Of a DNA stretch of 64,000 nucleotides, positions 35,535-54,841 are shown one piece after another (position 1 is the stretch's first letter; every line of letters starts with the position of its first letter). The notes under the pieces are model-generated. The model saw nothing but the letters and a program-made list of their open reading frames with translations, was not told the origin of the DNA and made no database searches. The stretch is taken from the NCBI GenBank assembly GCA_029891345.1, contig CM056993.1, positions 279,078,016 to 279,142,015 of the forward strand. Direction: 5' to 3'. Position numbers and translations under genes: made by a program. This DNA is from Dryococelus australis (taxonomy: Eukaryota; Arthropoda; Insecta; Phasmatodea; Phasmatidae).

Positions 35535-35540
35535 GGTTTA
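35535..35540 (+). other. Left target-site duplication of the Polinton
   Basis: ggttta directly before the AGTAGTA terminus. Its partner right of the element is ggctta (52352-52357), identical at five of six positions. Six base pairs is the length expected for Polintons. Confidence 0.75.
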
Positions 35541-35924
35541 AGTAGTACGTGGATACCTTGAGAACAACCCAATTTTTGCCCCAAATTCCTCGAATTCTAC
35601 CCCAAAATCAAGCAGTTTTACCCCAAAATCAAGTAATTTCAATTTGTTATAATATCAGTATTCCTTTTCGAAATAACTCCAAAAACACCCAAAAAAGGAT
35701 CAAAAATGCCTATAAAAAACCACCGAAAAACACCATATTTCAAACCGGTTTTTTATCCACACAAATAGTGAACACGAGATTTAGACCCAAAATCAAGCAT
35801 TTTTACCACTAAATCAAGCAAATTCTCACGTTTTATAGAAATGTCAATTTTGCAACCAAGTAATCTAAATCAAGCAAATTTATGCCAAAAACAAACAAAA
35901 ATACGTTAAAATCAAATGAAATAT
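35541..35924 (+). repeat. Polinton left terminal inverted repeat
   Basis: About 384 bp starting AGTAGTACGTGGATACCTTGAG and ending near atcaaatgaaatat. It is inverted relative to 51932-52351, with several small indels. It holds five imperfect copies of CCCCAAAATCAAGCA, near 35592, 35612, 35777, 35807 and 35867. Confidence 0.9.
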
Positions 35925-36403
35925 CATGTCATTATTCTTTACAGTTTATATTCGAAGCTCTACTAATTTTTTAAAAACTTCTTCTATTTGCTCTATATTT
36001 TCGCCAATATCTCGAAGTTCATATTTATCATCAATGTTATCTAAGATTGATCATTATAACTTTGTAAATTTGAATGAAATTTGGGCACTATATTTTTAAG
36101 ATCTCCAGATACATTATCTAATCTATAGGAAGGCAGTCTTGAACCACTTCCATTACCGTTTAAAATGTTAGTCAAACTGCATGGAAACCAAGGCATTTTA
36201 TTTATAAAGAAAATAAATTTATCAAGAGAAAGAAAATACTCATTTAGAATTATGAAAACAAATTTTTATTTGACCAAATAATTCATCTATATTTCTAAAA
36301 ATTTGTTAATGTTTTTAATGTAAACACTCGACTATAAGCCTAAAATAGTGTATTAAAATATCGAAACATTTTATTGATTCTTCCATTTATTAATTTTAAA
36401 AAT
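35925..36403. other. AT-rich spacer inside the Polinton
   Basis: Between left repeat and capsid gene. On the minus strand fragments such as LKNIVPKFHSN could be the tail of a further small protein near 35950-36200, but I cannot assign it. Confidence 0.35.
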
Positions 36404-37698
36404 TTATACATCTTCAGTAATTCTCTCTTTCAAATAATCATAAGTTAAATTCCATTGACTAATTAGAACAACATTGCAAACTGTATTTTCTCCAACTTTT
36501 TTATTAAAATCTACACAAATTTGTATATTTGTTTTTTCTTTGACTACAGTTGTTAAGCAATCAATAATATACAACAGTCTTCGCCCAAAAAATGAATAAT
36601 AATTGACACTGTCTTCGAAGTTTACAGTTGGTTTACAATAAAGTTCATTATTTCTACATATAGTATCTAGTTTTGTTTTTGAATTTCTAAAATCACTATA
36701 AGCGAGGAACATTTTATCATGAAAACCATTTTCAATATCTAGATTCCAATTTTTTTCTAGAAAAATTTTAAGTTCTACCATTTTTTATATCAAAATTTTC
36801 ACGTTACAATGGTCAAACATATAAGCGTGGACATACTGTTCAGCACGAATTTTTATATTAATTTGAAACCCATAAATTACAAAATCGGGCATGTCAAACT
36901 GTAAATTATTAAACTGATCTTTTATATCAAAGCTAAAAATAGTTGTTTCGGGAGGGACTTCTTTTTCTAAAAATTGCCAATAATTAAATCTAATAGGTAT
37001 TTTAGGATGTTTGTATATTTTTTCTTTAATTGCAATTGCTGTGTTAGATTCGTATTCAACAATGGGCCACATAATTTCTAATTTTATAATTTCAATTTTG
37101 CCTGGATCCGCATAGCTTTCCTGAACCATACCATCTGCATTTTTTGTTTCATAAACAAATAAGCAATTGTTATCAGATGAATTTCTAAAAAAAGTATTTT
37201 TATAATCGCCTTTTCAATAAATTTAATTGTCATGAATAAAACCAAACAAATATCTAAGAGGATATGTTATTTCATTCTTTAAATGACTATGAACAGATTT
37301 TACTCGATATCTACTATATACAGCAGAAAATTCTAAATAATTTTGTTCACTTGGTAATCTTAATAAAGCAATCGTTATTGTCGGTGTTATAACCGGATTA
37401 TCAACAGCTTCAATGATATTTCCATGTTTTGAAATTTCTACTCTAGAAAACTAAAAAGGAAAAAAGTTCGAACAAACATCAATATTGTTTTGTTTACATA
37501 ATTTGCCGTAACTTCAACCCTATAACTCGTTTTTAATATATATCGGTCATAAACATAAGAGTAATTAGGAAAAGAAAAGTCATCTCCTATAGGAATATCA
37601 AATTCAATTCTATTATTGTAAACATTTAAATTCCCCCTAGTTTGATCAGTTGGGGGAAAAGTTTGTCTCTCGAAACTCTCAATATTTTTATAACTCAT
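36404..37698 (-). pseudogene. Polinton major capsid protein (double jelly-roll type)
   Basis: Four leftward segments in successive frames follow the order of the roughly 440-residue capsid-type protein common in insect Polintons. First is an N-terminal IEFDIPIGDDFSFPNYSYVY strand region; then VRYR-like and YPLRYLFGFIHDN segments, the latter followed by RNSSDNNCLFVY; then KIEIIKLEIMWPIVEY, FNYWQFLEKEVPPETT, DFVIYGFQINIK and YMFDHCNVKI; then a last 125-codon part with SYFGRR-like SFFGRRLLYIIDC. It would form the virion shell. Stops at about 37445 and 37215 and a shift at 36785 inactivate it. Assignment rests on my memory of the family; a structure prediction would settle it. Confidence 0.75.
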
Positions 37699-37857
37699 TT
37701 AGAAGAAAACAATTATATATAAATGAAAGATTCGAAGAACATTTCTCGAGTTAAATTACTCATCGAGAGATACAAAAATTATAAAAGCAACATGAAGTGG
37801 AATATGGAAAAAAATATGAAGCTGCCCTTAATTGACGAACTACGCAATATCGGTTAA

Positions 37858-37880
37858 AAAAAAAAAAAAAAAAAAAAAAA
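37858..37880. repeat. Poly-A tract inside a Polinton gene
   Basis: Uninterrupted A run of about 23 bases following the first 45 codons of the conserved virion-type gene. It destroys the frame and may be a slippage product. Confidence 0.85.
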
Positions 37881-38689
37881 AGGTTAGCGAAGAAAATAAA
37901 AATTTAATAACATTAGTTCGTGTAGCAGCAACAATTTAGATTATCCACCAACACCAGAATAAACATCATTTGAAAGAGAATTATTCCGAAAATTCCCCAA
38001 TTCGGAAGAGCAAATGGGAATTTTACCATTGAGAAATTTAACAATGCATTGTCTGATTCGACGCGTCCGGCGTCTGATTCTACTATAAATCTCGGAAAAG
38101 AAATTGCAAAAAGAATGAATGTTATTAATGAGAAATTTTGTTTACGTGGAGTTGGGCAAAATTTTTACATTGGAGATACACAAGTAACGATAGATAATGA
38201 TAAATTATATGTTAAGGATAAAGAATACAAATTAACAGCAGGACATCGTAATTTGTTAACAGAAAATTTACAAGAAGCTCTTGTGGGTAAATTTGATGAT
38301 AATGACCTTAAAAATTACACAGAATTTTTTTATTAACCAATGCTGTACTTCAAAAATATATTCCTAATAAGAAAAGGAATAAGCCAAGTTCAAGTAGTGG
38401 TTGGAAGTATAATAATATAATTAGTCCAATTTATGAAAAATACTTAAAAGAATCGCCTTCAAGAACAGCACCAAACACACCAGAAAAAAGATTTCTCCAA
38501 GAACTCCTACATCTGGAGAAGATATAAAAAATATAGCAATTTGCCGAAAGAATATGTTTGGATGGATGATGTTATAAAGTTCATGGTGAAGAAAATGCTG
38601 GTAATAACAATTATTACAATGAAAAGGTAAGTATAATGAATATGTTGAACAATAAATTTTCTGATTTTGTTGTTAATAATCCAAAAGGA

Positions 38690-38791
38690 ATACCTTATCT
38701 TATGAGTTTTAAATGTAATTCCGCACTCATTTTGGAATTAATACCTTATCTTATGAGTTTTAAATGTAATTCCGCACTCATTTTAGAATTC
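38690..38791 (+). repeat. In-frame 51-bp tandem duplication
   Basis: Two copies (38690-38740, 38741-38791) of a unit beginning ataccttatcttatgag differ at about two positions and encode the same 17 residues starting IPYLMSFKCN. The length keeps the frame. Confidence 0.9.
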
Positions 38792-38840
38792 AGAACACCA
38801 TGGCAAAGGCATTATAAATTGGGCATTAAATAATTAAAAT

Positions 38841-39146
38841 TTGCCCAAAATGCATTTGCCAGGCTATAATTATTGTGGCCCATTTAATAAATTAAATGAA
38901 AGGTTGGATAGAGGAGACACAGGAATAAATAAACTAGATGAATCATGCAAATATCACGATATTGCTTATAGAGAACATAAAGATTTAGACTCTAGACATA
39001 AAGCTGATAAAATTTTACAAAAAGAAGCTAAAGAAATTATGTTAGATAAAAACACATCAATTGGTGAAAAAATTGCTTCTGCTGCTGTTGCCCCAACTAT
39101 GTTTACGAAAAGAAAACTTGGTTGGGGAATTAAAATGTTTTATTGA
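38841..39146 (+). CDS. Parvovirus-type phospholipase A2-like protein
   Basis: An intact 101-codon frame. LPGYNYCGPFNKL near residue 6 corresponds to the calcium-binding loop, and LDESCKYHDIAY near residue 32 carries the catalytic His-Asp pair; a helix with ADKIL follows. This fold occurs in the parvoviral VP1 unique region and in Polinton/adintovirus proteins, where it is thought to help virions breach endosomal membranes. The loop reads CGPF where the family normally has CGPG, which should weaken calcium binding. It is one of the few uninterrupted frames left and follows the conserved virion-type gene immediately. Confidence 0.8.
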   Translation: MPKMHLPGYNYCGPFNKLNERLDRGDTGINKLDESCKYHDIAYREHKDLDSRHKADKILQKEAKEIMLDKNTSIGEKIASAAVAPTMFTKRKLGWGIKMFY

Positions 39147-39229
39147 TTATATATATACTTATAAATAAATATAAAAAGCTTAACTTTCGATATATCCATT
39201 AATCAATTAAGGGATTTGAGTGTAGATAA

Positions 39230-39550
39230 ATTTTTAACAAAAGATCAACTTGAGAAAAAAAATTAAAAGAAGGCAAATGTTTCTTACTAACTTTGGCACT
39301 TCCAATACTCAATAAGATATCCAAAGAAAAATCTGCAAGTGGTTTACGCAATGGCGGTTTTTTACCCATTTTAATTCCAATTTTACGTCACTTGGAGCTC
39401 TAGCTGGAGGAGCTACTGTAATTTGGAATTCTGTTGAACATACTAAAACAAAAACAAAAACAAATAATTAGAAGAACAACAGAGAGACAATTTGGCAATG
39501 GAAAACAAAGCAGGAAGTGGTTTAGTTGCGAAAAAGAGGGGAAGACCAAA
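39230..39550 (+). pseudogene. pX/mu-like core peptide
   Basis: Scattered over several frames are FLTKDQLEKK, KCFLLTLALPILNKI, GLRNGGFLPILIPIL, LGALAGGATVIWNSVEH and GSGLVAKKRGRPKKK. This order (glycine-rich GGFLP segment, alanine/glycine hydrophobic stretch, highly basic end) matches the adenovirus pX/mu-type precursor found in Polintons directly before the protease. In adenoviruses that peptide condenses DNA inside the particle. Frameshifts near 39260, 39370 and 39465 break it. The basic tail runs directly into the protease frame. Confidence 0.55.
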
Positions 39551-39989
39551 AAAAAAATTTACTATATACCCATTATCTAACATCGATATTGAAAAATATG
39601 TAAAAGTATTAAAAATGAAAAATTTCAGAAATGTTTATATGATTGATGAACTACCAAAAAGTATGCACAAAAATTAATGTGCTGTGGTAAATTTCGACAT
39701 TTCAACCAATCCTGGTACTCATTGGTTTTGCTATTTTAAAGAAAATAATGCTGTTTAATATTTCGATTCATTTGGAGGAAATATTCCTAGTAATTTAACT
39801 AATTATTTCAAAAACAGCAACGTTTATTACAATGATGATAGAATTCAGAATTTTTATTCAGTTATATGTGTACATCAATGTTTAATTGTATCATATATTT
39901 TTTCGATGGAATTTGAGTTTAACGATATAATTACTTTGTTATTTAATGACGGATATATTCGGAAAACCATTAATCAAATCTTTGAATAA
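39551..39989 (+). pseudogene. Adenovirus-type cysteine protease (virion maturation)
   Basis: Opens with LSNIDIEKYVKVLKMKNFRN and YMIDELPK, the conserved start of the family, then GTHWFCYF with the catalytic histidine, YFDSFGG with the acidic residue, and IQNFYSVIC in which Gln and Cys are seven residues apart as in adenain. All triad positions are present, but the glycine normally after the catalytic Cys is valine. One frame runs through with two in-frame stops (near 39677 and 39758). It would cleave capsid and core precursors. Confidence 0.85.
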
Positions 39990-40797
39990 AATTTTTGACA
40001 CTAGTGCTTATGCTTTAAAAAAAGATGTTGATTTGAAATACAAAACTATTGCTTCTGATTACGCTTAAAAACATATGTAGATTCACAATGCAATTCGGGT
40101 GTTTCTGATTTACAAAGTAAACTAAGCACTTGCTTTGATTATACAAAATGTTACTTTTTTAAGGCATAGAATTGTTAATATAGATGACCATAGAGACGAT
40201 AAAGACGCTTTCAATAAAAGATTTTTTAATAAACAAATAGCTGATTATGCTTCAAAAGAAGATATACATTTACAGTTCTGTGATACTATTGTTGATTATA
40301 TAAAATGGTTAAATAATACAAAACAGGCATTAAAAATGATGTAGATTCGAAATATAAAATTATTGTTTCTAACTATGCTTTAAAATCCGATGTAGATTTA
40401 AAATACAGTACTAGTGTTTCTGATTTAAAAACATATGTAGATTCAAAATACAATACTATTTCTTCTGATTTACAAAATCTAATAAGTAAAGTTTTTACTT
40501 ATACAAAAATTATGTTTGTTTTCGACATAATAGAATTACTAGTCGCTGATCCTATAGATAGAGATAATGCACTAAATAAAGGATTTTTCGATAAAGAAAT
40601 AGCTGATAAATTGCAAAATTTTAACAAAACAGTTTTGAATTATTGTGATACACTTGTTAACACAAAAGTTGAAAAAAGCAAAGAACTCCGATAAAGAATT
40701 AGATCTTTAAATACAAAATTTAAACTCGGAAGTTGAAAAATTTAAGGAAGAAAAATCTCATATACAATATTTACGTGGAAAGTGGAATAAAAAATAA
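39990..40797 (+). pseudogene. Repetitive coiled-coil fibre-like protein
   Basis: Rightward frames contain repeated heptad-like units with the pattern YALK.DVDLKY.T..SD and TYVDSKYNTISSDLQN, suggesting a trimeric coiled coil or shaft. A longer module recurs: IVNIDDHRDDKDAFNKRFFNKQ in the first copy and LLVADPIDRDNALNKGFFDKE in the second, each followed by a C-D-T segment. A KFKEEKSHIQYL-like end is reached near 40797. The position between protease and integrase suggests an attachment-fibre type protein, but that is inference. Stops at about 40070, 40342 and 40692 disrupt it. Confidence 0.45.
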
Positions 40798-41040
40798 TAA
40801 TTTTTTCCGCATAGATGATGTTGTAAATCTCTTTTCTTTTTTGATGTATTGTACTGTTTATAAAATAATTACTTATAATTTACCTGATGGTACTCTAGTA
40901 ACCCTTTTGATTTTAACAGAGGCGAGTTTTTTACGTTTAAAGTAAAATAGAAAATATCTAATTATTTTGTTGATGGAATGTTGACTACTATAGGAGTATT
41001 CATGAAATATAAAGATTAACTATATATATATATGCTATTA

Positions 41041-42114
41041 AATGGAGAACACGGTGTTGTTTGAAGTGCCAGAAGGTCACCAAAAATAATAATATAAAAA
41101 TGAAAATACTAAAAATGGACGATTAGTTCAGAAAAGCAAATGGTCAATATTCAATTCTAATAAATCAACATTCTTAAAACAAAAAAAAATAACAAAATAG
41201 AGAAGGCATAATCAATGCACTAGCTAAACCTGCACGGAAAATTTTCCAAGAAGAAAAGTGATTTCATATGGAATTGATGATTTATAGCAAATTGATATTG
41301 TTGAGATGGATACCGGAAATTTAAAAGGAATTTCACATATCAACAATGGTTACAAGCATATTATGACAATTATTGATGTTTTCACAAAATATGCATTTGC
41401 TATACAATTAAAGATAAAATAGCCAAAAATTTAGCAAATGCCTTAGAATGTATATTGTTGAAAAGAAAACCATGTAATATTCAAAGCAATATTGGCTTAG
41501 AATTTTATAACAAAATATTTAAAGAACTTATGCAAAAATATAACATCAATAATTATTCTACATACAGTGAACTTAAAGCCAGTTGTGTGGAAAGGTATAA
41601 TCATACAATGAAGAATAAAATGTGGAAGAAATTTTCTGCGAATGGCAATTACAAATGGGTAAATATATTATATGATTTAGTGAAAGAATGCAATAATACC
41701 AAACACAGAGCCATTGGCATGAAGATAATTAAAGTTAATAAAAAAAAGAAAAAAAAATTATGACAACAAGATTTTGCGAATGTGATTGCTAAACCGAAAT
41801 ACAAATTTAGCGATATTGACCGCATGAGTAAGAGACAATGGATCCTTGAAAAGGGTTATACAGGTAATTGGACAACAGAATTATTTGCCATTTTTGAGGT
41901 TTTAAATAATGAAGTACCAACTTACAAACTGAAAGATGACAAAGGAGTAGAAATAAAAGGGAGTTTTTATGAATACAAAATTATGAAAACCAACTATCCT
42001 GACAAATATTTGGTTGAAAAAAATTTAAAAACAAAACGTAATAATATGTATGTAAAATGGTTGGGTTTCGATAACTCTTATAGCTCTTGGATTAATAAAA
42101 CATATGTTTTGTGA
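41041..42114 (+). pseudogene. Polinton integrase with chromodomain
   Basis: The family motif LAKPARKIFPRRKV opens the readable part (about 41220), followed by QIDIVEMDT with the first catalytic Asp and YKHIMTIIDVFTKYAF. The second catalytic position reads NIQSNIGLEFYN, with Asn where Asp is required. The third is present in SCVERYN. NYKWVNILYDLVKECN, a linker and a C-terminal chromodomain (MYVKWLGFDNSYSSWI) follow. Stops near 41286, 41420 and 41761 and frame changes accompany the lost Asp. The enzyme joins element ends to host DNA; this copy is doubly inactivated. Confidence 0.9.
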
Positions 42115-42144
42115 ATTCGAATATTAAAATTAAAAATTAGTTTC

Positions 42145-43001
42145 TTACCCAATTCGACCAAAAATATTAATATCATTAATCAATTGTTGTTGAGTATAAT
42201 TATTTCCGGCAATATTAAAATAGTTGCGAAAATACTCAATGTGGTCATTCAATGTTTCTTTCATTACTTGATATAAATTGATAGAATTTGGAATATAATC
42301 AAATCTCAATATGTGTATACAATTTGGATGTATATCTATAATTATATGAAAAATTGTTTGAAAATTTTTTCTTTGAGTTCTAATGACATAATAATCATAT
42401 TCACAAGCATCATCATATAACTTAAAAAGAACGGAAGTTGACCTTAAATTTTGATTTTGTGTTTCTGGTACATGTGAGGTAATTTCTCTGATTATCTCAT
42501 TACTGCGAACTATTCCAACTTATGCCAGATCAACTGACACTCTTAAATTTGCAATATCGTCATCTTTACTTTTATTTATATTTTTAAAATGCTTTATTTG
42601 GCCCTTGTATAAATGCATTACATCTTTTTGAATATTATATTCACCATTTTTTCTAACTGAAGAAATAACTTCGTGTGTAACCCATTTTTTTTTTAAACTT
42701 TTTAGCGATTGGTAATTTTGAGCTCATAGCTAGATCATAAAGACCGTACTCTGTGATAAAAATTGTATTTTTTCATTATATGTTAGGGGCGGCATTTTGC
42801 CTCCCCTACCAATTGCTTCTAATTTAGCTTATCTTACACATCTACATGTTTTTTGATAGCACCTTTAGTATATTTATATTCTAACATTTCAGCAATATCT
42901 TTGGCTTTAAACCATGAATTATTTTCCTCATCAATAATCATAAAAACTTGTTGACTTTTGTAAATATGTTTGTTATTATTTATGTGTAGAATTGACTCCA
43001 T
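42145..43001 (-). pseudogene. BRO-family protein (BRO-N plus C-terminal DUF3627-like)
   Basis: The N-terminal 63 codons contain NSWFKAKDIAEMLEYKYTKG and AIKKHV, matching the BRO-N DNA-binding domain of baculovirus and other large DNA virus BRO proteins. After a stop, fragments continue leftward and the C-terminal part (LFKLYDDACEYDYYVIRTQR, PNCIHILRFDYIPNSINLYQ) resembles the domain found at the end of iridovirus/poxvirus BRO-like proteins. Length fits a two-domain BRO. These proteins bind DNA and affect transcription or replication. Several stops show decay. It lies between integrase and metalloproteinase genes. Confidence 0.75.
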
Positions 43002-43366
43002 TTTTATATGCGAAATTATGCGCAAGTGGAATTGGGCGAGTAGTAATAAGTCTTTTTACAAGTAATATTTTTTAATAAGAAAATGAAAAATTAAAGAAAA
43101 AAATTAAAGAATATATACCAGATTCATTGAATTCTATAGCTATTAGGGAGTTATATTTTCTAAGTAATTAATGATATATTTCATTTTATTTATGATTTTG
43201 CTATAAGATTCACACTTTATACCAAACATAGAAACACAATTTTTACAAACTCTAGTCAATTTATTTGTAAATTCGTTATATTCCATGACAGCTTGTTGCT
43301 AAAGAAATACAGTAAACCATTTGTATGTCTAAAAGCCGACTATATCATATTTGGTAAATTATGAAA
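43002..43366. other. AT-rich spacer inside the Polinton
   Basis: Between the BRO-like and metalloproteinase genes. No protein or repeat recognised. Confidence 0.5.
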
Positions 43367-44519
43367 TTACTTCCTAATTATACCAGTCTCTTTTATCTGG
43401 AAAATGCATTCGTCTGTTTCGGCATAATGCACCTTTTCATATAAGATAAAAGTTTTCCCTGAATGTGAATTAAAAACAGCATTTATTTTATATTCATCTC
43501 TTAATTCAATTGAATATAATCCTTTCGCATATCCATTAATACGACAATAACTTCGACAATCAACCATATAAATTTCATCATCTACAATCAGAGCTAAATC
43601 GCCTAAAAGCCTTTGGTATATAAAAAATTTGTTGAAATTGCTCGATAAAAACTTTAACCAATCTGCTATCAAAAATGGCTGATTGATTATTTTGTTGTCA
43701 TTCAAACTTTTTGTACAGACTTTTTTATTGTAAAAAATATACAATTTTTTTTCACCAATAATTTAAAATGTTTTTACGTGTCCATCTTTACATAAATCAA
43801 TTGGTTCACTGTCATTAAAATCATTTTGTTGAGGAGGTCCATAAAAGTTTTGAATGCTTTGGATGTCATCTAGTTGCAAATCAAACAAATAATTGTTAAT
43901 AATCGGATACATTATCACAGTTTGATCATTTGTATGTTGAAGATATAATACATGGCCGATCTCATGGATCAAAACAGTCAGTATATAAACTTTATTTTCA
44001 GGAGTGTTTTTCCCATCATTATATCAAGATTCCTGCATATTGGTGTGAATTTCAACAAGACTATTTTAATGATTTAGAGAAAATGCATGTGATAGTGTAC
44101 TACCAAATGGAAATAATTTAGTCTGACAAAATCTATGTAATTACTGATATCTATGTTGACCTTGTTTGTAAGAAATAAGTATATCTGGAGAATCTCTATC
44201 ATAAACAAATTTCAAATTTTGTATGCTTTTGCCAAATTGTAAAAGCCTCTTTTGCTAACTTTGTAATTGAATTATTTGTAAATGCAAAATACAATTTTAA
44301 AATATTTTTATTCCATTTGTTGGATGATGTATAACTAGAGAATATTTAATCCTTAACACCACATCTTGGCTTATTGATTAAATTAAGTGTTTCTTCATCG
44401 AGCGTACCATCAGTTGAAGAAGTGTTATAATAATCTTGAAATGTTCTTAAAGAACTTAAGAACTTTTCAGTATAAATTTTAAAGGGATTTTGCATCATCC
44501 TTTAGGTATCCATATTTAT
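43367..44519 (-). pseudogene. Matrix metalloproteinase (M10A) carried by the Polinton
   Basis: In family order on the minus strand: a KYGYLKDDAKS opening and LRTFQDYYNTSS helix (peptidoglycan-binding-like propeptide); the cysteine switch PRCGVKD (about 44360-44380); a NKWNKNILKLYFAF strand; AKEAFTIWQKHT; a DRDSPDILISY segment; zinc site VLIHEIGHVLYLQHTND with three His and the catalytic Glu; Met-turn VIMYPI; DLQLDDIQSIQNFYGPP. Then a hemopexin-like part (43367-43744) follows. There are no introns. Breaks are a stop after the switch, stops near 44145, 44070 and 44025, and shifts near 44505, 44205 and 43755. Granulovirus genomes carry MMP genes; a Polinton copy is unexpected. No signal peptide is visible upstream. 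Confidence 0.88.
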
Positions 44520-44679
44520 TTGAAAAGTTGAAAACACATTCTGTCGATTCTCTTTTTTTGGGGAGCACAAAATTTGTATTTTTGATAGTGAGAATAATTA
44601 TATAAGTCTTCATTTATGAGCAAAATATTTTCTTTAAGAAATTGCAAAATGTTTACGTGCAATTTAATGCTTCGCCACG

Positions 44680-45130
44680 GACCTCTTTATTTTTTGGGCA
44701 TACAGGTAAGCTGATACCTTACCAGTGACCCAATTTTTCCGGCTATTTTAGCGCCTACAAAACTCCATTAGGAGAACTTTCTCACTTCACCACCAACCAG
44801 CCATTATTTTTTTTTTGTGATGAAGTGGGAAAGTTTCAATTTTATATTTTTTTTTTGTTTCTAGCGCTCTCCCATATGATGTGGCGCCGTACACCATTTG
44901 GGGATACACTATTTATATGCATCAATACTCATATATAGACTATATGATCAACAACAAGTTTTTTGGCTCAAATTTTGAAAGATTTGGTGATAATCTAATA
45001 GTTCAAATATTGATGCCTCATATTTACATTATTAAATTATCTCTCAGACCAGAGATTGAACACATGACCTTCGCATTTGAAATCAGACGTTTTGCCGCTG
45101 AGCTACCGCGACAAGACAAGCAAGGCGATG
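44680..45130 (-). repeat. tRNA-derived SINE inserted in the Polinton
   Basis: Minus strand from about 45115: GTCGCGGTAGCTCAGCGGC (A box), CGTCTGATTTCAAATGCG and GGTCATGTGTTCAATCTC (B box), a tRNA-like head distinct from the Gly-type family. Leftward follows non-coding sequence to about 44680. This block of higher GC separates the metalloproteinase from the ATPase gene and does not fit either. Exact limits and target duplication were not resolved; sequence up to 45320 may belong to it. Confidence 0.55.
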
Positions 45131-45344
45131 ATTTTACTGCATCTTAAGGTGAGTTATTCTCACAAGTAGATAGCTTCATATTGCGAGTTGCACCACCAAC
45201 AGTTTGCTATACCACAACTAGATAACAGCACTGTCGCGGTAAAGATCCTTCCTGTTGAGGAAAACTGACGCGTGAAAGTGAGATATCTAGACGTGAGTTA
45301 AAAACTGTCGGATCTGATGTCTATACTTCCCACTGTTCATTTTT

Positions 45345-45890
45345 CTACTCAAATCTTGTGATAAAACTGTAGTCTTCATCCCAACATTTTGCACAGATCT
45401 CTTTAAATTTTTCATAAGACATATCGCCAACAACAAAATCATTATAAATATGTCTTAGATTCGTGTCATTTTGTTTGAATATACATAGAAAGTACGTGTT
45501 GTCTCTCATGAGTTGTTTGGGCACCCTAAAATATGTTTGTGCCAAATAAAATACATCTGTATTCTTGTGTCTCCCCCTAGTAAAGTACTCACGGATTATA
45601 TTTTGATCAACTAAAATAACATTGTCAAATATGACTAAAGAATTATTTTCAAATTGTTTTAAGGGAATCATTTTGTCATTGTTATTAAAAATGTATGCAT
45701 TTTCTCATTAAATCTGTTGGATATTACACCAAAGTCATTTTGTAACTGAATATATTTTAGTTGATTTAAACTTTGTGAACAAACATACAATTTATTAAAT
45801 TTTAACCATCGTGCTCATAGGTTGGTTTTCTTAGATTGCTGAGCCCAACAATTAAGCCTCTAATGTCATCAGACAGTAATTCACTATTCT
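45345..45890 (-). pseudogene. Polinton packaging ATPase (FtsK/HerA type)
   Basis: The N-terminal part reads IRGLIVGLSNLRKPTYEH where the family has a P-loop ending GKT; here Gly-Lys-Thr has become Arg-Lys-Pro, so nucleotide binding should be lost. KLYVCSQSLNQLKY, the Walker B-like NSLVIFDNV and an open 108-codon C-terminus with TDVFYLAQTYFRVPKQLMRD follow. That downstream motif is characteristic of Polinton and nucleocytoplasmic virus A32-like ATPases, which pump DNA into capsids. A stop near 45820 and shifts break the N-terminal half. Confidence 0.8.
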
Positions 45891-45973
45891 TTTTCTTTAG
45901 CATCACCTTCAGAAATTAAAACATTGGCATGTCGATAAACTTTTTTCATTTAATTAGATAATTTCTGTAATAA

Positions 45974-46686
45974 ATGGAGAATAAAGTATTTAAGTTAACA
46001 AACGACAGTTCTATACTAAAGAAGTAACTTCACTATGATATATTTCATAAAGATAAATCGATAGCATTAGTTAGTTTTCATGCGAAATTTTTAACACCAA
46101 ATATAGACAATTATACTATAACGACAATTGAAAAATTGAGTGCTGTCGTTGATAAGAATGAAGTTATCATTATTCCTAGAGGCCAATATGATGATGAATC
46201 TTTAAAAGAAGCTATAAATTCAATTGCCCATTTTCAACAAATAACACTGAACTGACATCAGTCAATGTGAAAAACAGAATATCGATTCAATCTAAGTTTG
46301 GTATTAAATTTGACGACCGATTGTCCAATATTCTTGGCTTGGAGAGAAATATGACTATAGAAAAAGACAAAATTGTGGTAGGTTACTATGTTACCTTATT
46401 TTAATCCAGTTAAAACAATAAATGTTCATTGTAATTTCGCATATGGAATGTTCATTAAGTATGACGAATCTAATCATTTAAAAACAGATATAATTGCTAG
46501 TTTTTCACCAAAAACTATGTTCGGCTTTAGAGATTATGTTAGTTATGAGCCCGCATATCCAATTTTTTTTATAGAATCAATAATGAACGGTTTAATCACA
46601 TTGTTCTAGAAATTAGGGATGAAAATCGTAAACTGATTATTTATGGCACTGATATTGACATTGTTTTAGAGATTAAATACATTTAA
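45974..46686 (+). pseudogene. Polinton minor capsid (penton-like) protein
   Basis: Starts MENKVFKLTND. Recognisable blocks are ALVSFHAKFLTPNID, EVIIIPRGQYDDESLKEAIN, SKFGIKFDDRLSNILGLERN, NPVKTINVHCNFAYGMFIKY and the final EIRDENRKLIIYGTDIDIVL. Order and spacing match the roughly 230-residue single-jelly-roll penton-like protein of insect Polintons, which would occupy capsid vertices. At least four frame changes or stops occur (near 46011, 46254, 46395 and 46606). It is the only rightward gene in the right half, facing away from the ATPase. Confidence 0.65.
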
Positions 46687-46732
46687 AATATAAGAAATTT
46701 AATAAAATGAAATATAACATCATTTGTTTAGT

Positions 46733-49700
46733 AACCCCATGGTAATGTATCTTCTATAATATCGTCTTTTTCCTACAAAATTATGTTTTTGTCATAGTTA
46801 AATTTAAATTCTGTTGCCATACACTTATTCACCAAATTTTTCGTTTTCTTATCTATTGTAAATGTATTGTTTTTTTTTATAATCATATTTTTCTTAGTTT
46901 TTTGTACCAATTCACCCATTGATTTCATGTTTAATTGTCAAGCATTTTCGTGATTTAGAGTGAATCCTTTAAATTTTGTATCTTGTGTACTTATCCAATT
47001 TATACCATAATTATTTTTTCCTAATTCGTCTGTCCATTCGCCAAGCATGCAGCCTGTTTTAACAGTATTTTTGCCGTCATCAATGTTAACCACACTGTCT
47101 GTGTCATAACATACTACTGTATCACCTAATTTATCTAACATTTAATATAAACATAATAGTGCATTTGATGTGGTAAAAGTTGCTTTAAATATATTTGTTA
47201 CTGTGCTATCTTCTACATAATTACCATTGTATTTATATGATACTTCAATTATTTTGTCATTAATGTAAACAACATTACTTATTTATATTCTATCATCTAA
47301 TAACAATTCGTACTAACAAGCTGGATCAGTAATATATTCTGTTTGTGTCAAATTTTCTCTCTGTCCAAATTTTACCCAAAGTGAATTTAAACCAATTTTG
47401 GCAACATCACATTTCCCTCGATTTTTATCACTTTTTTCAATGTTTTAATCGATTTTTGTTCTTTTTTTATAACACGAATATATTCCTATTTTGATTTGTA
47501 ATCTTCTTCCCATGGACTAGTTTCTAATTTTATTTTCATAAATGCTTTAATGTAGTCTAAACATTTTATTACTTTTTTGTTTGAAATGCCAAACTTCATG
47601 AATTTTAAGTAATTTGTAACCTTTTCAAATAACTATATTGAGTTCTAATGTAGTCCATGTACGGTTTATTGCTCTTTCTATATCACTATGATTACATTTT
47701 CCTTTTTCTCTACAACACATTTTGAACATAAAGTAAACAATAATTTTTCTTCTTTAATTTGAAGTACTGGATGATATAAATTTCTAGGTGGTAAAACTTT
47801 ACATTTGACCAATCCAAACCAATTTTCGTCGTAATTTTTAGGGTTATATATTTCAATAGGATGCCCAAGTGGGTATAATAAAAATACATCACAATTGGAT
47901 ATAAACTATGAACATATATAAATTTTTTTCCTGAAACTTTCAATTCTGAACCATTGGTTCTACCTCCAAAAAATGTATCTCTAGGCTGTAATGGTTCTAT
48001 TACATTTTTTGTTTTTCTATATTATTTTTGTAGACAATCGATGTTTTCAATTTGCAAGCCCACATTTCCCTTACTTTATAACCATTTTGTCTTAAAATTG
48101 TCGTTCAATTGTTTGTTTTAGTAAGCAAATCATCCATACTTCCATTTTTACAATTATTTATTGTGTCTGGTGAATAACAATCAGGACATCCATGCCAAAA
48201 AAAGCCATGATATTGATAAATTGTTTTAGTTTTTTCCTCGTAACCATCAACTTTTGCTCCATAAATAGTAACTTCTTCTCCATTTAATGCATGTCGAACA
48301 TTTGGAAATATATTTAACCATCACGAAATTGATTATTTACTAAACATTTCTTCTTTATCATCTTTAACTACTGCAATAGTATTTTACTTAAAAAATTTGA
48401 TCCATAAACAGCCATACAAACACCTGCGATTGTTATGTAGCAAAATGGATTTGTATTCGCTATTTATAGAAAAGATTCTCTAAATTTAAGGCATCCACGT
48501 CGTAAAATATCAACATCAGAATCACAATATTCAGGAAGTTCTTTTTTGAAATCGGAGATATCTTTTGTTTTTTCAGCATGACACTTTAAAAAGTCTTTTC
48601 GTTGTTCTTCTTTCATCGTATTGACTCCATAATATTTTGTAGCTGGTATTTTCCAATATAATTGTGATTTTCTGGTATATTAAAAAGGTGTGGAAAATAT
48701 CCTTTTTTAAACTCTTTTAAACCAAATGTTTTGGGAAATGTTGCAAGACTTCCTAGTATAAAGTTTATACTATCAATTTTTTGATAATTAGACTCGATAT
48801 TTTATGTTGCATAATTTTTTAGCCTTGATTTATTGTTTGAGGTTTTATACTATTTCTAACACAATATTGTAAAATAATGTATTAATCGTAGCGTTTGGTA
48901 TTGTGCGCAATAAATGTATATTATTTATTCTCTTCAGATATCGCCCATTCGCAAAACTCATCATTTTACTAAAATGTATTTTGTTTCCATTAAATTCTTG
49001 AACAGATATAAAGTTTGGTGTATGAAAACCAGTATCTTGTGTGGCTTCATATTTGAAAAAGTATTATTTTTCAGTGTAAGAACAATCCATATCTTATTTC
49101 TTGTTTTTGCAATTACAGGTACAATCTTTCATACAAATACCCCCTTTTTGTTGTCTCTCTTGCATTTAACATTTATGTTCATCAGTTTTCACAAATTCCT
49201 TACAATTACAACTTTTGATATAATCACAATTGTCTTTTTTATTTCTCAAGCATATCTTGTTACACGTTTTACACTTATAGACTGCCTTACACGCAACATC
49301 GTGATTAGTAAAACATTCCTGTCCAAAACAATATCTATTGCATTTTTGACAATATATTCTAATTCGATCTTCATTTTCGTGCTGTGGTTTTTGACATAAA
49401 TTGCATTTTTTTTAAATTACACTCATGTTGATCTTTATTATTGTATGGTTTGTAACAATTTTTGCAATAAAAAACACTACCTAATAATTCTTTCATACTA
49501 TTAAGTACATCGTAATATTCATCGCGGGAATACGATTAAATAGTAGTTGATTTTTTTTAAACCAGATTGTATAATTGAATTGAAATGTGCAGCTGAAACA
49601 ATTTTAATTTGAATATTTAGAAAATTTTCTGCATCCATAATATATTCCAAACTGAAGCCAATTTCACAACTTTTTCCCATTCTTACACAAGTTCATTAGC

Positions 49701-50759
49701 TAATTCTCCTTGTAGTTTTCTTCCTTTTCTAATGTAAATAGGTTCATTATTCGTTAATTCTCTATCCAAAATGATATTTGTTTCGTATGTTAAAGCTGTA
49801 ATTATTGCTCTATGACGACATAAAATGTCATCATTGTGAATTTTAGTAATACAGTGTTTTGCTTTTATACCTTTAGTTAAATTGGCAATTTTTTTACCCT
49901 TATTTCCTCTTGGAATTCTATAAACATCAATATCGAAAGTAGTTTCATTTATATCAACATTTTCATTTGATGTAATTACTCTTTCAATTTGATTAAGTAA
50001 ATTTTCGGCGTTTAAATTATTATTTCTTGCGGCCGAAATAGTGTGGTGAAAATTCAGATTATTTGTATATATTCTCATTTGATCAACTTGATTATAACCA
50101 GCTAATTTTCTTACTGCTTCCATTGCTCCGTGAACAGCATTTCGAGCAGTATTAATTTTTTCTATTGGAGTTCGTACTAAATTATTTATACAAATACCGT
50201 ATTTTGTTTGCCAAATGTTGAAAGCTTCATTAAAATTAAGACTATATACGAACCCGTTAAAATCTTTTGTTTGAAAGGAAAAATTTGACCCAATCTTTTA
50301 TTTTCTTCTTTACTTTCGGGAATTGAAAAGGGCAAATTTATGTTAACTTTATATCTTGGTGTTACAAATATCTGATTAGAAAAGGAGAATGTTTTTTAAT
50401 GTTATTTCTTAGCTTTTTCATATTTTACATTGTAATTAGAAAAGGGTAAATTTGCAAAATTATTGTTTGTTTGTCCATATCTAATAAATGGTATAAGAGT
50501 TGTAATTAAATTATCTTTCCTTATATTATATATATTTGTTATGTCGAACTTTTGCTTTAGTTCTTAATTCCGTAACTGTCAAATCATTTAGATTCTCGAT
50601 AGGATCTTCAAATTTATATTCTCTTTTTTGAATGATACTTGTAATAAGATCATTTCTATGTAATTTATATAAATAATTTTTTTTTAATTCTATACCTATA
50701 ATTCTCAACTCGGCCGCTCTCCTTTCAGGTAGATCTGCTACTGAATAATTCATAGCCAT
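46733..50759 (-). pseudogene. Protein-primed family B DNA polymerase of the Polinton
   Basis: A SAP-like start (MAMNYSVADLPERRAAELR) may be its N-terminus. Then a 146-codon segment with KIHNDDILCRHRAIITALTY, a cysteine-rich zinc region (CQKCNRYC, YKCKTCNKIC, EHKCYMQ), exonuclease motif II (FIAHNTKRYD), motif III (EYCDSDVDILRR), the terminal-protein region marker FWHGCPDCYS, PLQPRDTFFGGRTN, polymerase motif A (IYVHSLYP), motif B (GLNSLWVKFGQR, usual Gly changed to Val) and motif C (CYDTDSVVNID). Motif order leaves no doubt. Stops and shifts break it into many pieces. It would replicate the element from a terminal protein. Confidence 0.92.
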
Positions 50760-50895
50760 ATTTGTTGATTTATAAGAAATAAAAACTTATAACAATTTTA
50801 AAAAATAAATAAATGAAGAAGTGTGAAAATAATGAAAATGCTGGAATGAAGTTGGAAAAGTGCTTAAATTAAATAGATAATAATTTTTAGAATGT

Positions 50896-51579
50896 TTAAC
50901 TTCTTCTGTGATAATATTTCTCATTATAAGATTTTTGCATAGTATCGAATGTTTTGTCTTTAGTGGTTTTATTTACAAAAAATAATTTTATAGATTTATT
51001 CTCATTACAAACTGTGCACGTTTTTGTTGGATAATTATCATTTTGAATTTCATTATGAATATCTATTGATGTATTGTGTGATTTAGTTTTTTTATGCTCT
51101 TTGAGATATATAATACAAACATATTTTCCACATTCGCATAATATTTTCTCATTAAAACATTCTTTACATTTTGTTGTAAGTTTGTCTATCCTTGCTTTAT
51201 GAGGATAAAATGAATCGATAGATTTATTCTACTTACATACTACACATGTCTTAGTTGAATAATCTTCCTGTTGAATTTATTTTCTGTTGTGTAATTTACA
51301 CTCTTTATGCTTTTTGAGATATAGTTTAGAAACATATTTTCCGCATTTGCATAATACTTTCTCTTTATTTAAATCATAAAGATTTCTGGGGTGATCGGTG
51401 GCACATTTTTTGCATGTGTTGACATGCTTATCTTTTGTGTGCTTATGTGATGCAAAACATTCAATGTTTAATACTTCACCGCACTTTTTACATTGCTTAG
51501 ATATGGTATTATTTTCCATTTCGAGCATAGTTGCCATTTCATTTAAGGAAATGTATTTATTAAGAGAATTTAAAAACAT
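50896..51579 (-). pseudogene. Three-module zinc-binding protein
   Basis: The first 100 codons are open: CKKCGEVLNIECFASH with CKKCATDH (a four-cysteine knuckle) followed by CKCGKYVSKLYLKKHKECKLH (a C2H2-like finger). The pair is repeated at 51060-51250 (CVVCK, CKECFNEK, CECGKYVCIIYLKEHKKT), and a third knuckle (CTVCNENKSIKLFF) ends the protein at 50896. One stop near 51233 and a small frame change interrupt it. The knuckle resembles zinc ribbons preceding phage HNH/endonuclease VII proteins. Nuclease or DNA-binding function is only a guess. It is the outermost gene beside the right terminal repeat. Confidence 0.55.
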
Positions 51580-51931
51580 TTTTCTTTAATGACTTGTTCC
51601 TTTATAAATTACACAGAACAAAAAATGGAGGCTCTGCTCACCAAGTTGAACAATTCGTTTGAATTCAACAAATTACAATATCTAGAAAAAATTAATGGTT
51701 ACTGCAACAGATTTTGAAATTTATGAAAATATAATTTTGGCAAAAAAATGTATTGTATTGTAAGTGGCATATTTAAATTTCATTACCAGAGCACTGTGTG
51801 AAAATAATAGATCAAAATACTTTGAAACTATTGAACTAGAAGGAAGTTTTTATGTCATGTAACGGCTTAAAATAAATGAAAAATGTAAAATTTAAAAATG
51901 CTCTAGAATTCTCTTAATTTGAATCTTTTAA

Positions 51932-52351
51932 ATATTTCATTTGATTTTAGCTTGATTTTGGCATAAATTTGCCTGATTTAAATTACTCGCTTGCAAAATT
52001 GACATTTCTCGAAAACGCGAAAGTTTACTTGATTTTGGGGTAAAAATGCTTGATTTTGGGTCTAAATCTCGTGTTCACTATTAGTGTGGATAAAAAGCAG
52101 GTTTGAAAAATGGTGTTTTTTCGGCGGTTTTTTTTTTTTGCATTTTAAATGCTTTTTTGAGTGTTTATGGTGGTTTTTATAGGTTTTTTGATGCTTTTTG
52201 GGGGAGTTTTTGGGGCTATTTCAAAAAGAAATACTCTAATTATAACAAATTGAAATTGCTTTATTTTGGGGTAAAATTGCTTGATTTTGGGGTAAAATTC
52301 GAGGAATTTGGGGCGAAAATATGGTTTTCCTCAAAGTACCCATATACTACT
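51932..52351 (-). repeat. Polinton right terminal inverted repeat
   Basis: About 420 bp; on the minus strand it starts AGTAGTATATGGGTACTTTGAG and contains the same CCCCAAAATCAAGCA units as the left repeat. It is longer than the left one because of an inserted, partly duplicated stretch around 52130-52200. Confidence 0.9.
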
Positions 52352-52357
52352 GGCTTA
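52352..52357 (+). other. Right target-site duplication of the Polinton
   Basis: ggctta, against ggttta on the left. Confidence 0.7.
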
Positions 52358-52574: not shown

Positions 52575-53010
52575 TTAATGTAAACAAAAGAATAAAACGC
52601 TCGTGATATAGGCTATTCACGGTAAAGTGAGCACTTTTGAAAGCCCTTTCATTCCAAATAATAGGCCCTAGTAAAAAAGTAAATTTTATTTTCGTCTAGA
52701 ACGTAAACTTTCAGGTGCGGTGGAATCTACACACTGTGTTTATTACTTACATGACAATATTTATTTCAAAAGGTGGTTGGAGGATAAAATATGGCTGAAA
52801 TGAAAAAGTAACTAGGGCCTCAAAAGTGCTCACTTTGCCGTGAACAGCCTATACATGACATACTTAGGAAACAGCCAAACACGTCATGCAGAGGGTGATT
52901 TATCGAAACTTTGATTTAAAAAATGTCATGATATGCGAATAGATTACAGATTAGAAGGATTTGTGCCGTGCACTTGTTAAGCCCCCATAAGCGTGCTGTG
53001 GGCGGCTAAA
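52575..53010 (+). repeat. Dispersed repeat interrupted by a MITE
   Basis: Flanks of the MITE at 52609-52852 (aataaaacgctcgtgata on the left; ggaaacagccaaacacgtca, tttgatttaaaaaatgtcat and gcgaatagatta on the right) join into the repeat also seen at 25990-26200. Confidence 0.55.
52609..52852 (+). repeat. MITE family 1, short variant
   Basis: Ends taggctattcacggtaaagtgagcactttt and aaaagtgctcactttgccgtgaacagccta are near-perfect inverted repeats of about 28 bases. The interior (about 185 bases) differs from the long copies. Its insertion between ...gtgata and catgac... fits a TA target. Confidence 0.8.
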
Positions 53011-54149: not shown

Positions 54150-54555
54150 CATAGGCCGCTCATGATAAAATGACCACTTTTGAAAGCCCTGCGTAAGATC
54201 TACTTGTGTGCACCTTGTGTCTTCTTACATATTATGTAAAATTAACATTGCCACGGGCTTCAGCACTTTATTCATTCGTCGATACAGGAAAACTGTAAAA
54301 TGATTAGGAAAGCAAACATTAAAAAAATCTGTTCATTTTTTACATTTCTATGCACTAAAAAGGCAGAAAGGGAAATGGATTTGTAACACTTTTTATTCGA
54401 CGTTAAGATATGGAACTACTTTCAATCTATCTTTGCCAACTTGACAGGGCGCGAATCACTCAGTGCGCGCGTTGAAACATATGCAGCTAGAGGCAGTGAG
54501 TTTTTTTTTCTGAGGTCGATTTCGAAAGTGGTCGCTTAATCGTGAACAGGCTTTA
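54150..54555 (+). repeat. MITE family 1 copy abutting a glucosylceramidase exon
   Basis: Left end ataggccgctcatgataaaatgaccactttt, right end tcgtgaacaggcttta. The right end lies only 5 bases from the predicted exon end at 54561, so the splice donor of that exon is followed almost at once by MITE sequence. Confidence 0.75.
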
Positions 54556-54560
54556 CGTAC

Positions 54561-54841
54561 GTGTTGTGGAGGACGACGACGGTGACGCGGTCCGGGGTGA
54601 GGAAGGCCACGCCCTGGAGGCTGTCGCTGCCCGTGTGCAGGCCGACGCGCACCGACCCCGGCCTCACGAACCTCGAGACGTGCGCAATGCCGTAGAACGT
54701 GGGCTGCTTGTAGAACTCGTCAGCCGTGGCGTTCACCACCACCGGCGCGTCGTTCCTCGTCTCGTTCAGCCAGTTGGGGCCGCCGTCCAGCCCGATCGCC
54801 ATGTTCAGGTCCACCCAGCCGCTCACCCAGTTGTTGCTCAC
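54561..54841 (-). CDS. GBA: Lysosomal glucosylceramidase, penultimate-type exon
   Basis: Ninety-three codons matching the end of the (beta/alpha)8 barrel and the return to the C-terminal beta domain of acid beta-glucosidase: NNWVSGWVDLNMAIGLDGG, EFYKQPTFYGIAHVSRFVRP, then GSVRVGL and VTVVVLHNT. Joined to the previous exon at phase 0, residue spacing matches human GBA exactly. The acceptor is gcag/GTGAGC without a clear pyrimidine tract. The donor is AACAC/GTACGT (phase 2), alternatively 54557 with GTAAAG. The exon is strikingly GC-rich. The following terminal exon was not found to the left. Confidence 0.88.

What the first reader, a model, noticed from the sequence alone, without database searches (positions are those of the whole stretch)
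43367..44519. A Polinton carries a matrix metalloproteinase with propeptide, catalytic and hemopexin parts
Cysteine switch PRCGVKD, zinc site HEIGHVLYLQH, Met-turn VIMYP and a hemopexin-like tail occur in order, without introns, inside the terminal repeats of a Polinton and between its BRO-like and ATPase genes. I know MMP genes from granuloviruses, where they are thought to loosen basement membrane, but not from Polintons. The gene may have been exchanged between a Polinton or adintovirus and a large DNA virus, or captured from an insect. Decay matches the other element genes, so it arrived before the element died.
Basis: partly seen in the sequence, partly recalled or inferred. Interest (0 to 1): 0.9.

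Follow-up and report, generated by a model that had tools for sequence, protein, structure and literature searches.

The report
Matrix metalloproteinase carried by insect Polintons
A dead virus-like mobile element in an insect-like genome carries a broken tissue-dissolving enzyme gene, and many sister genes, some still open, belong to an enzyme family distinct from the animals' own that may help such elements spread through the body.

Summary
It lies between BRO and ATPase genes. It is no stray insertion: 20 of 20 MMP slices examined from the same genome lie beside Polinton genes, in two arrangements; the window has the second. Two genome searches list 266 distinct MMP places, one of them the host's own exon-split gene; 12 of 150 rows of one search keep a 524-codon open frame. 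Polinton-type MMPs form one clade (100/100) apart from cellular MMPs, the host's included. dN/dS is 0.19-0.32 between some lineages but 0.41-1.12 among older copies. So this is an old element gene, not a recent host capture. Novelty is limited: nr already holds 'collagenase [Ladona dragonfly adintovirus]', a member of the same clade. New here are the clade, the copy number, the two positions, and a slot between integrase and ATPase that holds MMP, BRO only, or neither. Basement-membrane remodelling for spread is inferred; exchange with granuloviruses is untested.

The parts
35541..52351 (.). degraded Polinton, 16,811 bp
   Evidence: TIR ends, TSD, AT-rich block (GC 0.276 against 0.37 in the flanks)
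35541..35924 (+). left terminal inverted repeat, starts AGTAGT
   Evidence: 330 of 431 columns identical to the right TIR, 58 gap columns
51932..52351 (-). right terminal inverted repeat
35535..35540 (.). left target-site duplication GGTTTA
   Evidence: 5 of 6 bases match the right flank (sequence)
52352..52357 (.). right target-site duplication GGCTTA
43149..44613 (-). decayed matrix metalloproteinase gene, whole extent
   Evidence: tblastn with the open own-genome MMP: 44453-44220, 44215-43295, 43283-43149; start by eye
44346..44501 (-). propeptide end with cysteine switch PRCGVKD
   Evidence: PG_binding_1 only below cut-off (E 0.037)
43763..44023 (-). catalytic piece with zinc site HEIGHVLYLQH and VIMYP
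   Evidence: Peptidase_M10 E 2.7e-13; groups with three window-type copies of the same genome, 100/100
43149..43762 (-). hemopexin-like tail in pieces
   Evidence: aligned to the hemopexin part of the open copy; no Pfam hit of its own
42145..43055 (-). BRO-like gene: BRO-N (42834-43055) and DUF3627 (42145-42519) pieces
   Evidence: PF02498 E 4.1e-8, PF12299 E 1.2e-10
45345..45704 (-). packaging ATPase piece
   Evidence: Pox_A32 E 7.3e-5, at its cut-off; 150 of 150 scored own-genome candidates match
41237..42114 (+). integrase pieces with chromodomain end
   Evidence: 47% identity over 246 aa to the L009 ORF that matches rve (2.1e-11) and Chromo (1.4e-4, below cut-off); window pieces 41380-41763 and 41767-42114 alone have no Pfam hit
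36413..37698 (-). double jelly-roll major capsid protein, broken
   Evidence: 54% over 365 aa to the L009 ORF matching PF21738 at 4.2e-27; the window piece alone is below cut-off (7.9e-5)
38838..39146 (+). phospholipase A2-like gene piece
   Evidence: PF08398 E 2.7e-17
47678..48679 (-). PolB-like pieces
   Evidence: by motifs (recalled) and weak PF03175 E 0.0074; the C-terminal PolB-like part of the relatives was not found here

Best explanation
This is a dead copy of an insect Polinton whose lineage carried its own matrix metalloproteinase as an accessory gene. The enzyme family goes back to an animal MMP captured long ago, probably as an intronless copy, and has since evolved as an element gene (shown: one clade, open frames without introns, two arrangements, low dN/dS between some lineages). 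Most likely mechanism (inferred): when the element replicates as a virus, it makes a secreted zymogen held inactive by the propeptide cysteine. Once activated, the zinc protease, aimed by its hemopexin propeller, cuts basement membrane so that particles leave the gut or other epithelia and reach new tissues, including the germ line where the element integrates. I put the identity and history at about 0.9 and this use at about 0.5.
For: 20 of 20 own-genome MMP slices, picked from 150 rows, show Polinton genes beside the MMP. Two searches give 266 distinct MMP places, one being the host gene. Tree: 34 Polinton-type rows against 22 cellular rows, 100/100, with the host exon on the cellular side (same split but for P0067). 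NG86 dN/dS is 0.19-0.32 in the 8 computed comparisons of L001 or L010 with other lineages. Zn histidines, Glu and Met are invariant in a 30-row alignment, and the switch Cys is at 90% or more; in 59 proteins, fragments included, 51 have the zinc motif and 48 the switch motif. The AlphaFold model (mean pLDDT 86.6, pTM 0.56) matches human proMMP-1 over 457 columns (E 6.2e-30; TM 0.37, rmsd 17, so the domains are placed differently) and MMP hemopexin domains alone (TMt 0.80-0.83). 12 of 150 scored rows have a 524-aa open frame; 9 fetched open copies differ by a median 0.95%. Baculovirus precedent: MMP in every betabaculovirus sequenced by 2014 (passage, PMC4192325); MMPs in basal lamina remodelling (passages, PMC7552049).
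Against: No expression, virion or activity data exist here. dN/dS is 0.41-1.12 in 13 comparisons among the other first-type lineages and 0.42-0.59 in 3 window-type ones; 7 of 31 comparisons failed. This fits decay after insertion and weakens the claim for these. The gene is dispensable: 5 of 16 sampled ATPase neighbourhoods have the integrase next door with neither MMP nor BRO, and 3 have BRO without MMP. Location in Polintons was checked in 20 slices and the window, all of this genome; elsewhere only the Ladona entry is named as a virus. PolB was identified by recalled motifs; Pfam, NCBIfam and PDB searches gave no PolB hit for the open ORF.
Confidence: 0.72

Rival explanations
1. Secondary insertion: an MMP copy landed by chance in this one dead Polinton.
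For: The gene lies near the middle of a decayed element, and nested insertions are common in large genomes (general knowledge).
Against: The BRO-MMP order recurs in 5 of 5 window-type slices, with the ATPase next in 4 of the 5. All 8 ATPase hits (of 150) with a listed MMP within 3 kb have it downstream on the same strand. Decay is of the same order as in other element genes.
Confidence: 0.02
2. Capture from this host: a retrocopy of the insect's own MMP, taken up by its Polintons.
For: The gene has no introns, and the genome holds a host MMP with exons at C11:34140822-34145164.
Against: The host exons are 70-81% identical to a mayfly MMP, while the other listed places are at 29-43%. The host exon tested groups with insect cellular MMPs and the Polinton rows form their own clade.
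Confidence: 0.03
3. Gene exchange with large insect DNA viruses: Polinton MMPs and those of nudiviruses, granuloviruses, ascoviruses or entomopoxviruses share a viral ancestor.
For: Foldseek against viral models ranks a Helicoverpa zea nudivirus 2 MMP first (E 1.7e-35), better than human proMMP-1 in the PDB (6.2e-30), then granulovirus and other insect-virus MMPs. BRO genes, beside the MMP here, are also baculovirus genes (recalled).
Against: Identity is only 14-27% in the first 15 viral rows. No such virus is named in the 120 rows listed by each of three capped protein searches. No tree with them was possible. E-values from two libraries are not strictly comparable.
Confidence: 0.3
4. The enzyme acts on immune or signalling proteins (melanisation, cytokine release) or inside dying cells, and not on basement membrane.
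For: A granulovirus MMP changed melanisation in silkworm larvae (passage, PMC4192325) and is described as kept in cells until death (passage, PMC3877225).
Against: A hydrophobic N-terminus (by eye) and a hemopexin domain fit a secreted matrix enzyme, but do not decide it.
Confidence: 0.3
5. Passive cargo without use to the element, kept only because copies amplify.
For: Not seen in part of the sampled copies; high dN/dS among older copies.
Against: dN/dS 0.19-0.32 in the 8 comparisons with the recent lineage and conserved catalytic residues across the family.
Confidence: 0.1

Closest known systems
Collagenase of Ladona dragonfly adintovirus (Eupolintoviridae; taxid 2609856)
   Same: A Polinton-class virus protein with propeptide, catalytic and hemopexin regions; 41% identical over 95% of the open own-genome copy and inside the same clade.
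   Different: Seen here only as a protein sequence and a record name; its gene order was not seen. No paper in the searched library holds both 'adintovirus' and 'collagenase'.
wosp proteases carried by nematode Mavericks
   Same: A protease family acquired as cargo by Mavericks/Polintons and spread between species (passage of a meeting report, PMC10680173).
   Different: Nematodes; the wosp family was not compared here by sequence.
Granulovirus, nudivirus, ascovirus, iridovirus and entomopoxvirus MMPs
   Same: MMP-fold proteases of insect DNA viruses; MMP is reported in every betabaculovirus sequenced up to 2014 (PMC4192325, passage).
   Different: 14-27% identity in the first 15 structural matches; some align over a short part only. 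Relation by tree untested.
Cellular MMP1/MMP14-type genes of insects
   Same: Same domain order and active site.
   Different: Split over exons in this host; separate clade.

Membership tests
Polinton/Maverick (Polintoviricetes) | terminal inverted repeats and 6-bp target-site duplication | tested here: met
   TIRs 35541-35924 and 51932-52351, 88.5% identical over ungapped columns; GGTTTA/GGCTTA, 5 of 6
Polinton/Maverick (Polintoviricetes) | double jelly-roll major capsid protein | tested here: met
   54% over 365 aa to an ORF matching PF21738 at 4.2e-27; window piece alone below cut-off
Polinton/Maverick (Polintoviricetes) | rve integrase | tested here: met
   47% over 246 aa to an ORF matching rve at 2.1e-11; window pieces alone have no Pfam hit
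Polinton/Maverick (Polintoviricetes) | packaging ATPase | tested here: met
   Pox_A32 at its cut-off
Polinton/Maverick (Polintoviricetes) | protein-primed PolB | tested here: inconclusive
   recalled motifs and weak PF03175 E 0.0074; C-terminal part not found in the window
Polinton/Maverick (Polintoviricetes) | adenain-like maturation protease | not tested
   not looked for
Matrix metalloproteinase (M10A) | HExxHxxGxxH zinc site and Met-turn in a matrixin domain | tested here: met
   family: invariant His, Glu and Met in 30 rows, zinc motif in 51 of 59 proteins, Peptidase_M10 7.2e-34. Window copy: Peptidase_M10 2.7e-13 but the Gly is lost
Matrix metalloproteinase (M10A) | cysteine-switch propeptide | tested here: met
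   PRCGVKD in the window; [PS]RCG in 48 of 59 family proteins, fragments included
Matrix metalloproteinase (M10A) | hemopexin domain | tested here: met
   open copy: Pfam 2.2e-6, solved MMP domains TMt 0.80-0.83; window only by alignment to it, no Pfam hit of its own
Matrix metalloproteinase (M10A) | secretion signal | not tested
   hydrophobic start seen by eye in P0001; no predictor at hand
Matrix metalloproteinase (M10A) | proteolytic activity on matrix | not testable with these tools
   needs bench work

The most novel reading that the evidence does not exclude
Insect Polintons are, or were until recently, infectious viruses that own a private lineage of matrix metalloproteinases. The gene was captured once, before the insect orders that now hold its relatives diverged or spread by virus since, is often paired with a BRO gene as a movable module that changes position between Polinton lineages, and is used to cross basement membranes towards the germ line. 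It may also have been a source of MMPs for large insect DNA viruses.
Probability: 0.3. Interest if true: 0.82.

Novelty: new variant of a known kind. Interest (0 to 1): 0.6.

Why it matters
Whether animal Polintons still travel as viruses is an open question (general knowledge). A matrix-type protease kept under selection by the element would be hard to explain for a purely intracellular transposon and gives a testable handle. It sets Polintons beside the insect DNA viruses that have MMPs. It also warns annotators that insect gene models named collagenase-like or stromelysin-like may in part be Polinton genes and not insect genes.

Tried and rejected
A scan of IMG/VR with the window catalytic piece confirmed no relative among 25 pattern matches. 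With the 10-row alignment it gave 12 loci, none of which matched a Polinton marker of my set other than the MMP; the two that I read carry genes that look phage-like by eye beside a short matrixin. Paper searches for a Polinton MMP: no paper holds the terms; I saw only the listings, mostly the first 10 to 20 of many, and nothing relevant in them. Three adintovirus-related texts searched by term show no collagenase or metalloprotease (PMC11071296, PMC8363768, PMC11071308). A paper that I recalled as the first adintovirus description (10.1093/ve/veaa055) and the XcGV MMP paper (PMC113222) are not held. PHROGs gave no hit.

I asked whether presence of the MMP follows the ATPase tree. The tree is too weak (3 of 20 branches starred) and the MMP label is not clustered (8 changes, shuffled mean 7.9; 350 of 500 shuffles as low). 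In that tree three rows (L054, L057, L059) were labelled MMP+BRO although only the MMP was seen in their slices, and the second HSP of L028 was left out.

I guessed an American cockroach host. A first divergence figure for 10 open copies counted one place twice (L007 and L048); I recomputed it with 9 places. The careful tree left out the long rows and used 28 of the proteins in the Polinton-type set.

Full report
What is in the window. An AT-rich block (GC 0.276 against 0.37 in its flanks) is bounded by inverted repeats at 35541-35924 and 51932-52351. They match at 330 of 431 columns with 58 gap columns, 88.5% where both have a base, start with AGTAGT, and are flanked by GGTTTA and GGCTTA. Inside are a broken double jelly-roll capsid gene, a phospholipase A2-like piece, integrase pieces, BRO-N and DUF3627 pieces, a packaging ATPase piece and PolB-like pieces. 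This is a dead Polinton. The PolB label rests on recalled motifs and one weak Pfam match; the C-terminal PolB-like ORF of the relatives has no hit in the window.

The MMP. An open MMP of the same genome aligns from 44453 to 43149 at E 8e-77, and the reversed window gives nothing. It has 7 stops and 2 frame changes in 445 aligned residues; capsid 4 and 1 in 449; integrase 2 and 1 in 307. The zinc motif has lost its glycine. So the copy is dead and decayed along with its element.

The family in the same genome. The genome (3.4 Gb, 646 contigs, unnamed; its own MMP exon groups with insect MMPs) gave 150 matches among 150 scored of 1850 candidates for Pfam M10, and 140 of 140 scored of 3407 candidates with a window-type MMP. 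Together these are 266 distinct places on contigs C1 to C17, one being the host's own gene; the window's own MMP is in neither capped list, so the number is a lower bound for MMP-like places. Only 20 of them were looked at in context. Twelve of the 150 rows have a 524-aa open frame without stops. Nine open copies that were fetched because they scored best differ by 0.4 to 1.5%, median 0.95%. In contrast, only 5 of 140 rows show no stop inside the match. So one lineage moved recently and the window's lineage is old (inference).

Two arrangements. I picked 20 slices by hand down the ranking, which favours the first type. All 20 lie beside Polinton genes. In 15, the order is PolB-like ORF, MMP, capsid gene, and then the integrase where the slice shows it. 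In 5, as in the window, BRO follows the MMP on the same strand; the integrase lies beyond BRO in 4 of the 5 and the ATPase lies on the other side of the MMP in 4 of the 5. In 3 of the 15 first-type slices a BRO-N piece also follows the MMP on the same strand (L018, L020, L025). This suggests, but does not prove, an MMP-BRO pair that changed place as a unit.

A variable slot. Of 16 ATPase neighbourhoods sampled from the 150 hits (2.3-kb slices; 8 spread over the ranking, 8 mostly from its upper half), 6 show the MMP, 3 show BRO without MMP, 5 show the integrase next to the ATPase with neither (in one of these, L053, on the other strand than in the rest), 1 shows a PolB-like ORF, and 1 shows nothing recognised. 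Short slices and decay can hide genes, so 6 of 16 is a lower bound. The tree of ATPase pieces is too weak to tell gain from loss. Among the ranked lists, 8 of 150 ATPase hits have a listed MMP within 3 kb, and in all 8 it is downstream on the same strand.

Origin. The host has its own MMP split over exons at C11:34140822-34145164, 70-81% identical to a mayfly MMP; the other listed places are at 29-43%. In a careful tree of 56 rows, the 34 Polinton-type rows are split from 22 cellular rows at 100/100; the host exon is on the cellular side and the window piece sits with three window-type copies at 100/100. In the larger quick tree of 99 rows the same split appears, except that one protein from the Polinton-based search (P0067) falls with cellular MMPs. 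Members of the clade carry names from dragonfly, locust, planthopper, kissing bug, ants and beetles; only the dragonfly one is named as a virus. Whether the others lie in Polintons was not tested. That these are insects of several orders is general knowledge.

Selection and structure. NG86 dN/dS is 0.19-0.32 in 8 comparisons of L001 or L010 with other first-type lineages, 0.41-1.12 in 13 comparisons among the others, and 0.42-0.59 in 3 window-type comparisons; 7 of 31 comparisons failed in the program. Zinc-site residues are invariant in 30 family members. The predicted structure of an open copy (mean pLDDT 86.6, pTM 0.56) matches human proMMP-1 over 457 columns (E 6.2e-30), but with rmsd 17 and TM 0.37, so the relative placement of domains differs or is uncertain; MMP hemopexin domains alone match at TMt 0.80-0.83.

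Viruses. Among predicted viral structures, the best match is a nudivirus MMP, then granulovirus, iridovirus, ascovirus and entomopoxvirus MMPs, at 14-27% identity in the first 15 rows. Exchange with such viruses is possible and not shown.

How it may work. Shown: domain order, conserved switch and active site, low dN/dS between some lineages, location in elements. Inferred: secretion, activation, cutting of basement membrane, help in spread to other tissues and the germ line. The baculovirus model, in which MMPs take part in basal lamina remodelling during midgut escape, is from passages of PMC7552049.

What is new. The existence of an MMP in an adintovirus is already in nr. In the searched open library, no paper holds 'polinton' with 'matrix metalloproteinase' or 'adintovirus' with 'collagenase'; most subscription papers are not held. 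Protease cargo on Mavericks is known in nematodes (PMC10680173, passage). New, as far as these searches go, are the separate clade, the copy number, the two positions and the variable slot.

Noticed in passing
own genome G000, contigs C1 to C17: Polintons appear extremely abundant: the window's ATPase piece gave 20,439 first-look candidates, and all 150 scored ones matched; the rest were not scored.
   Followed up: partly
window 38838-39146: The element carries a phospholipase A2-like gene (PF08398 E 2.7e-17), like parvovirus capsid-linked PLA2 (recalled); homologues lie in other Polintons of the genome.
   Followed up: partly
window 35541-35924 and 51932-52351: The TIRs hold iterated copies of a motif like CCCCAAAATCAAGCA that also cross-match between different TIR positions.
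   Followed up: no
window, within 38570-38833: A short tandem duplication inside an element reading frame (repeated residues YLMSFKCNSALIL).
   Followed up: no
window 49166-51585: Cys-rich, zinc-finger-like pieces (by eye) upstream of the PolB-like pieces; one of them is found again in a relative, L022.
   Followed up: no
window 54539-54841: A probable host exon of glycosyl hydrolase family 30 (PF02055 E 3.8e-17) lies about 2.2 kb beyond the element.
   Followed up: no
window 52607-52853: A 34-bp inverted repeat pair, 94% complementary, 179 nt apart: possibly a small TIR element just outside the Polinton.
   Followed up: no
protein P0068 (Rhodnius): A host gene model joins an MMP of the Polinton clade to an unrelated-looking tail, possibly a neighbouring element gene fused by the gene caller.
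   Followed up: no
L029, L030: IMG/VR contigs with genes that look phage-like by eye carry short matrixin genes with the HEIGH motif and no visible hemopexin part.
   Followed up: no
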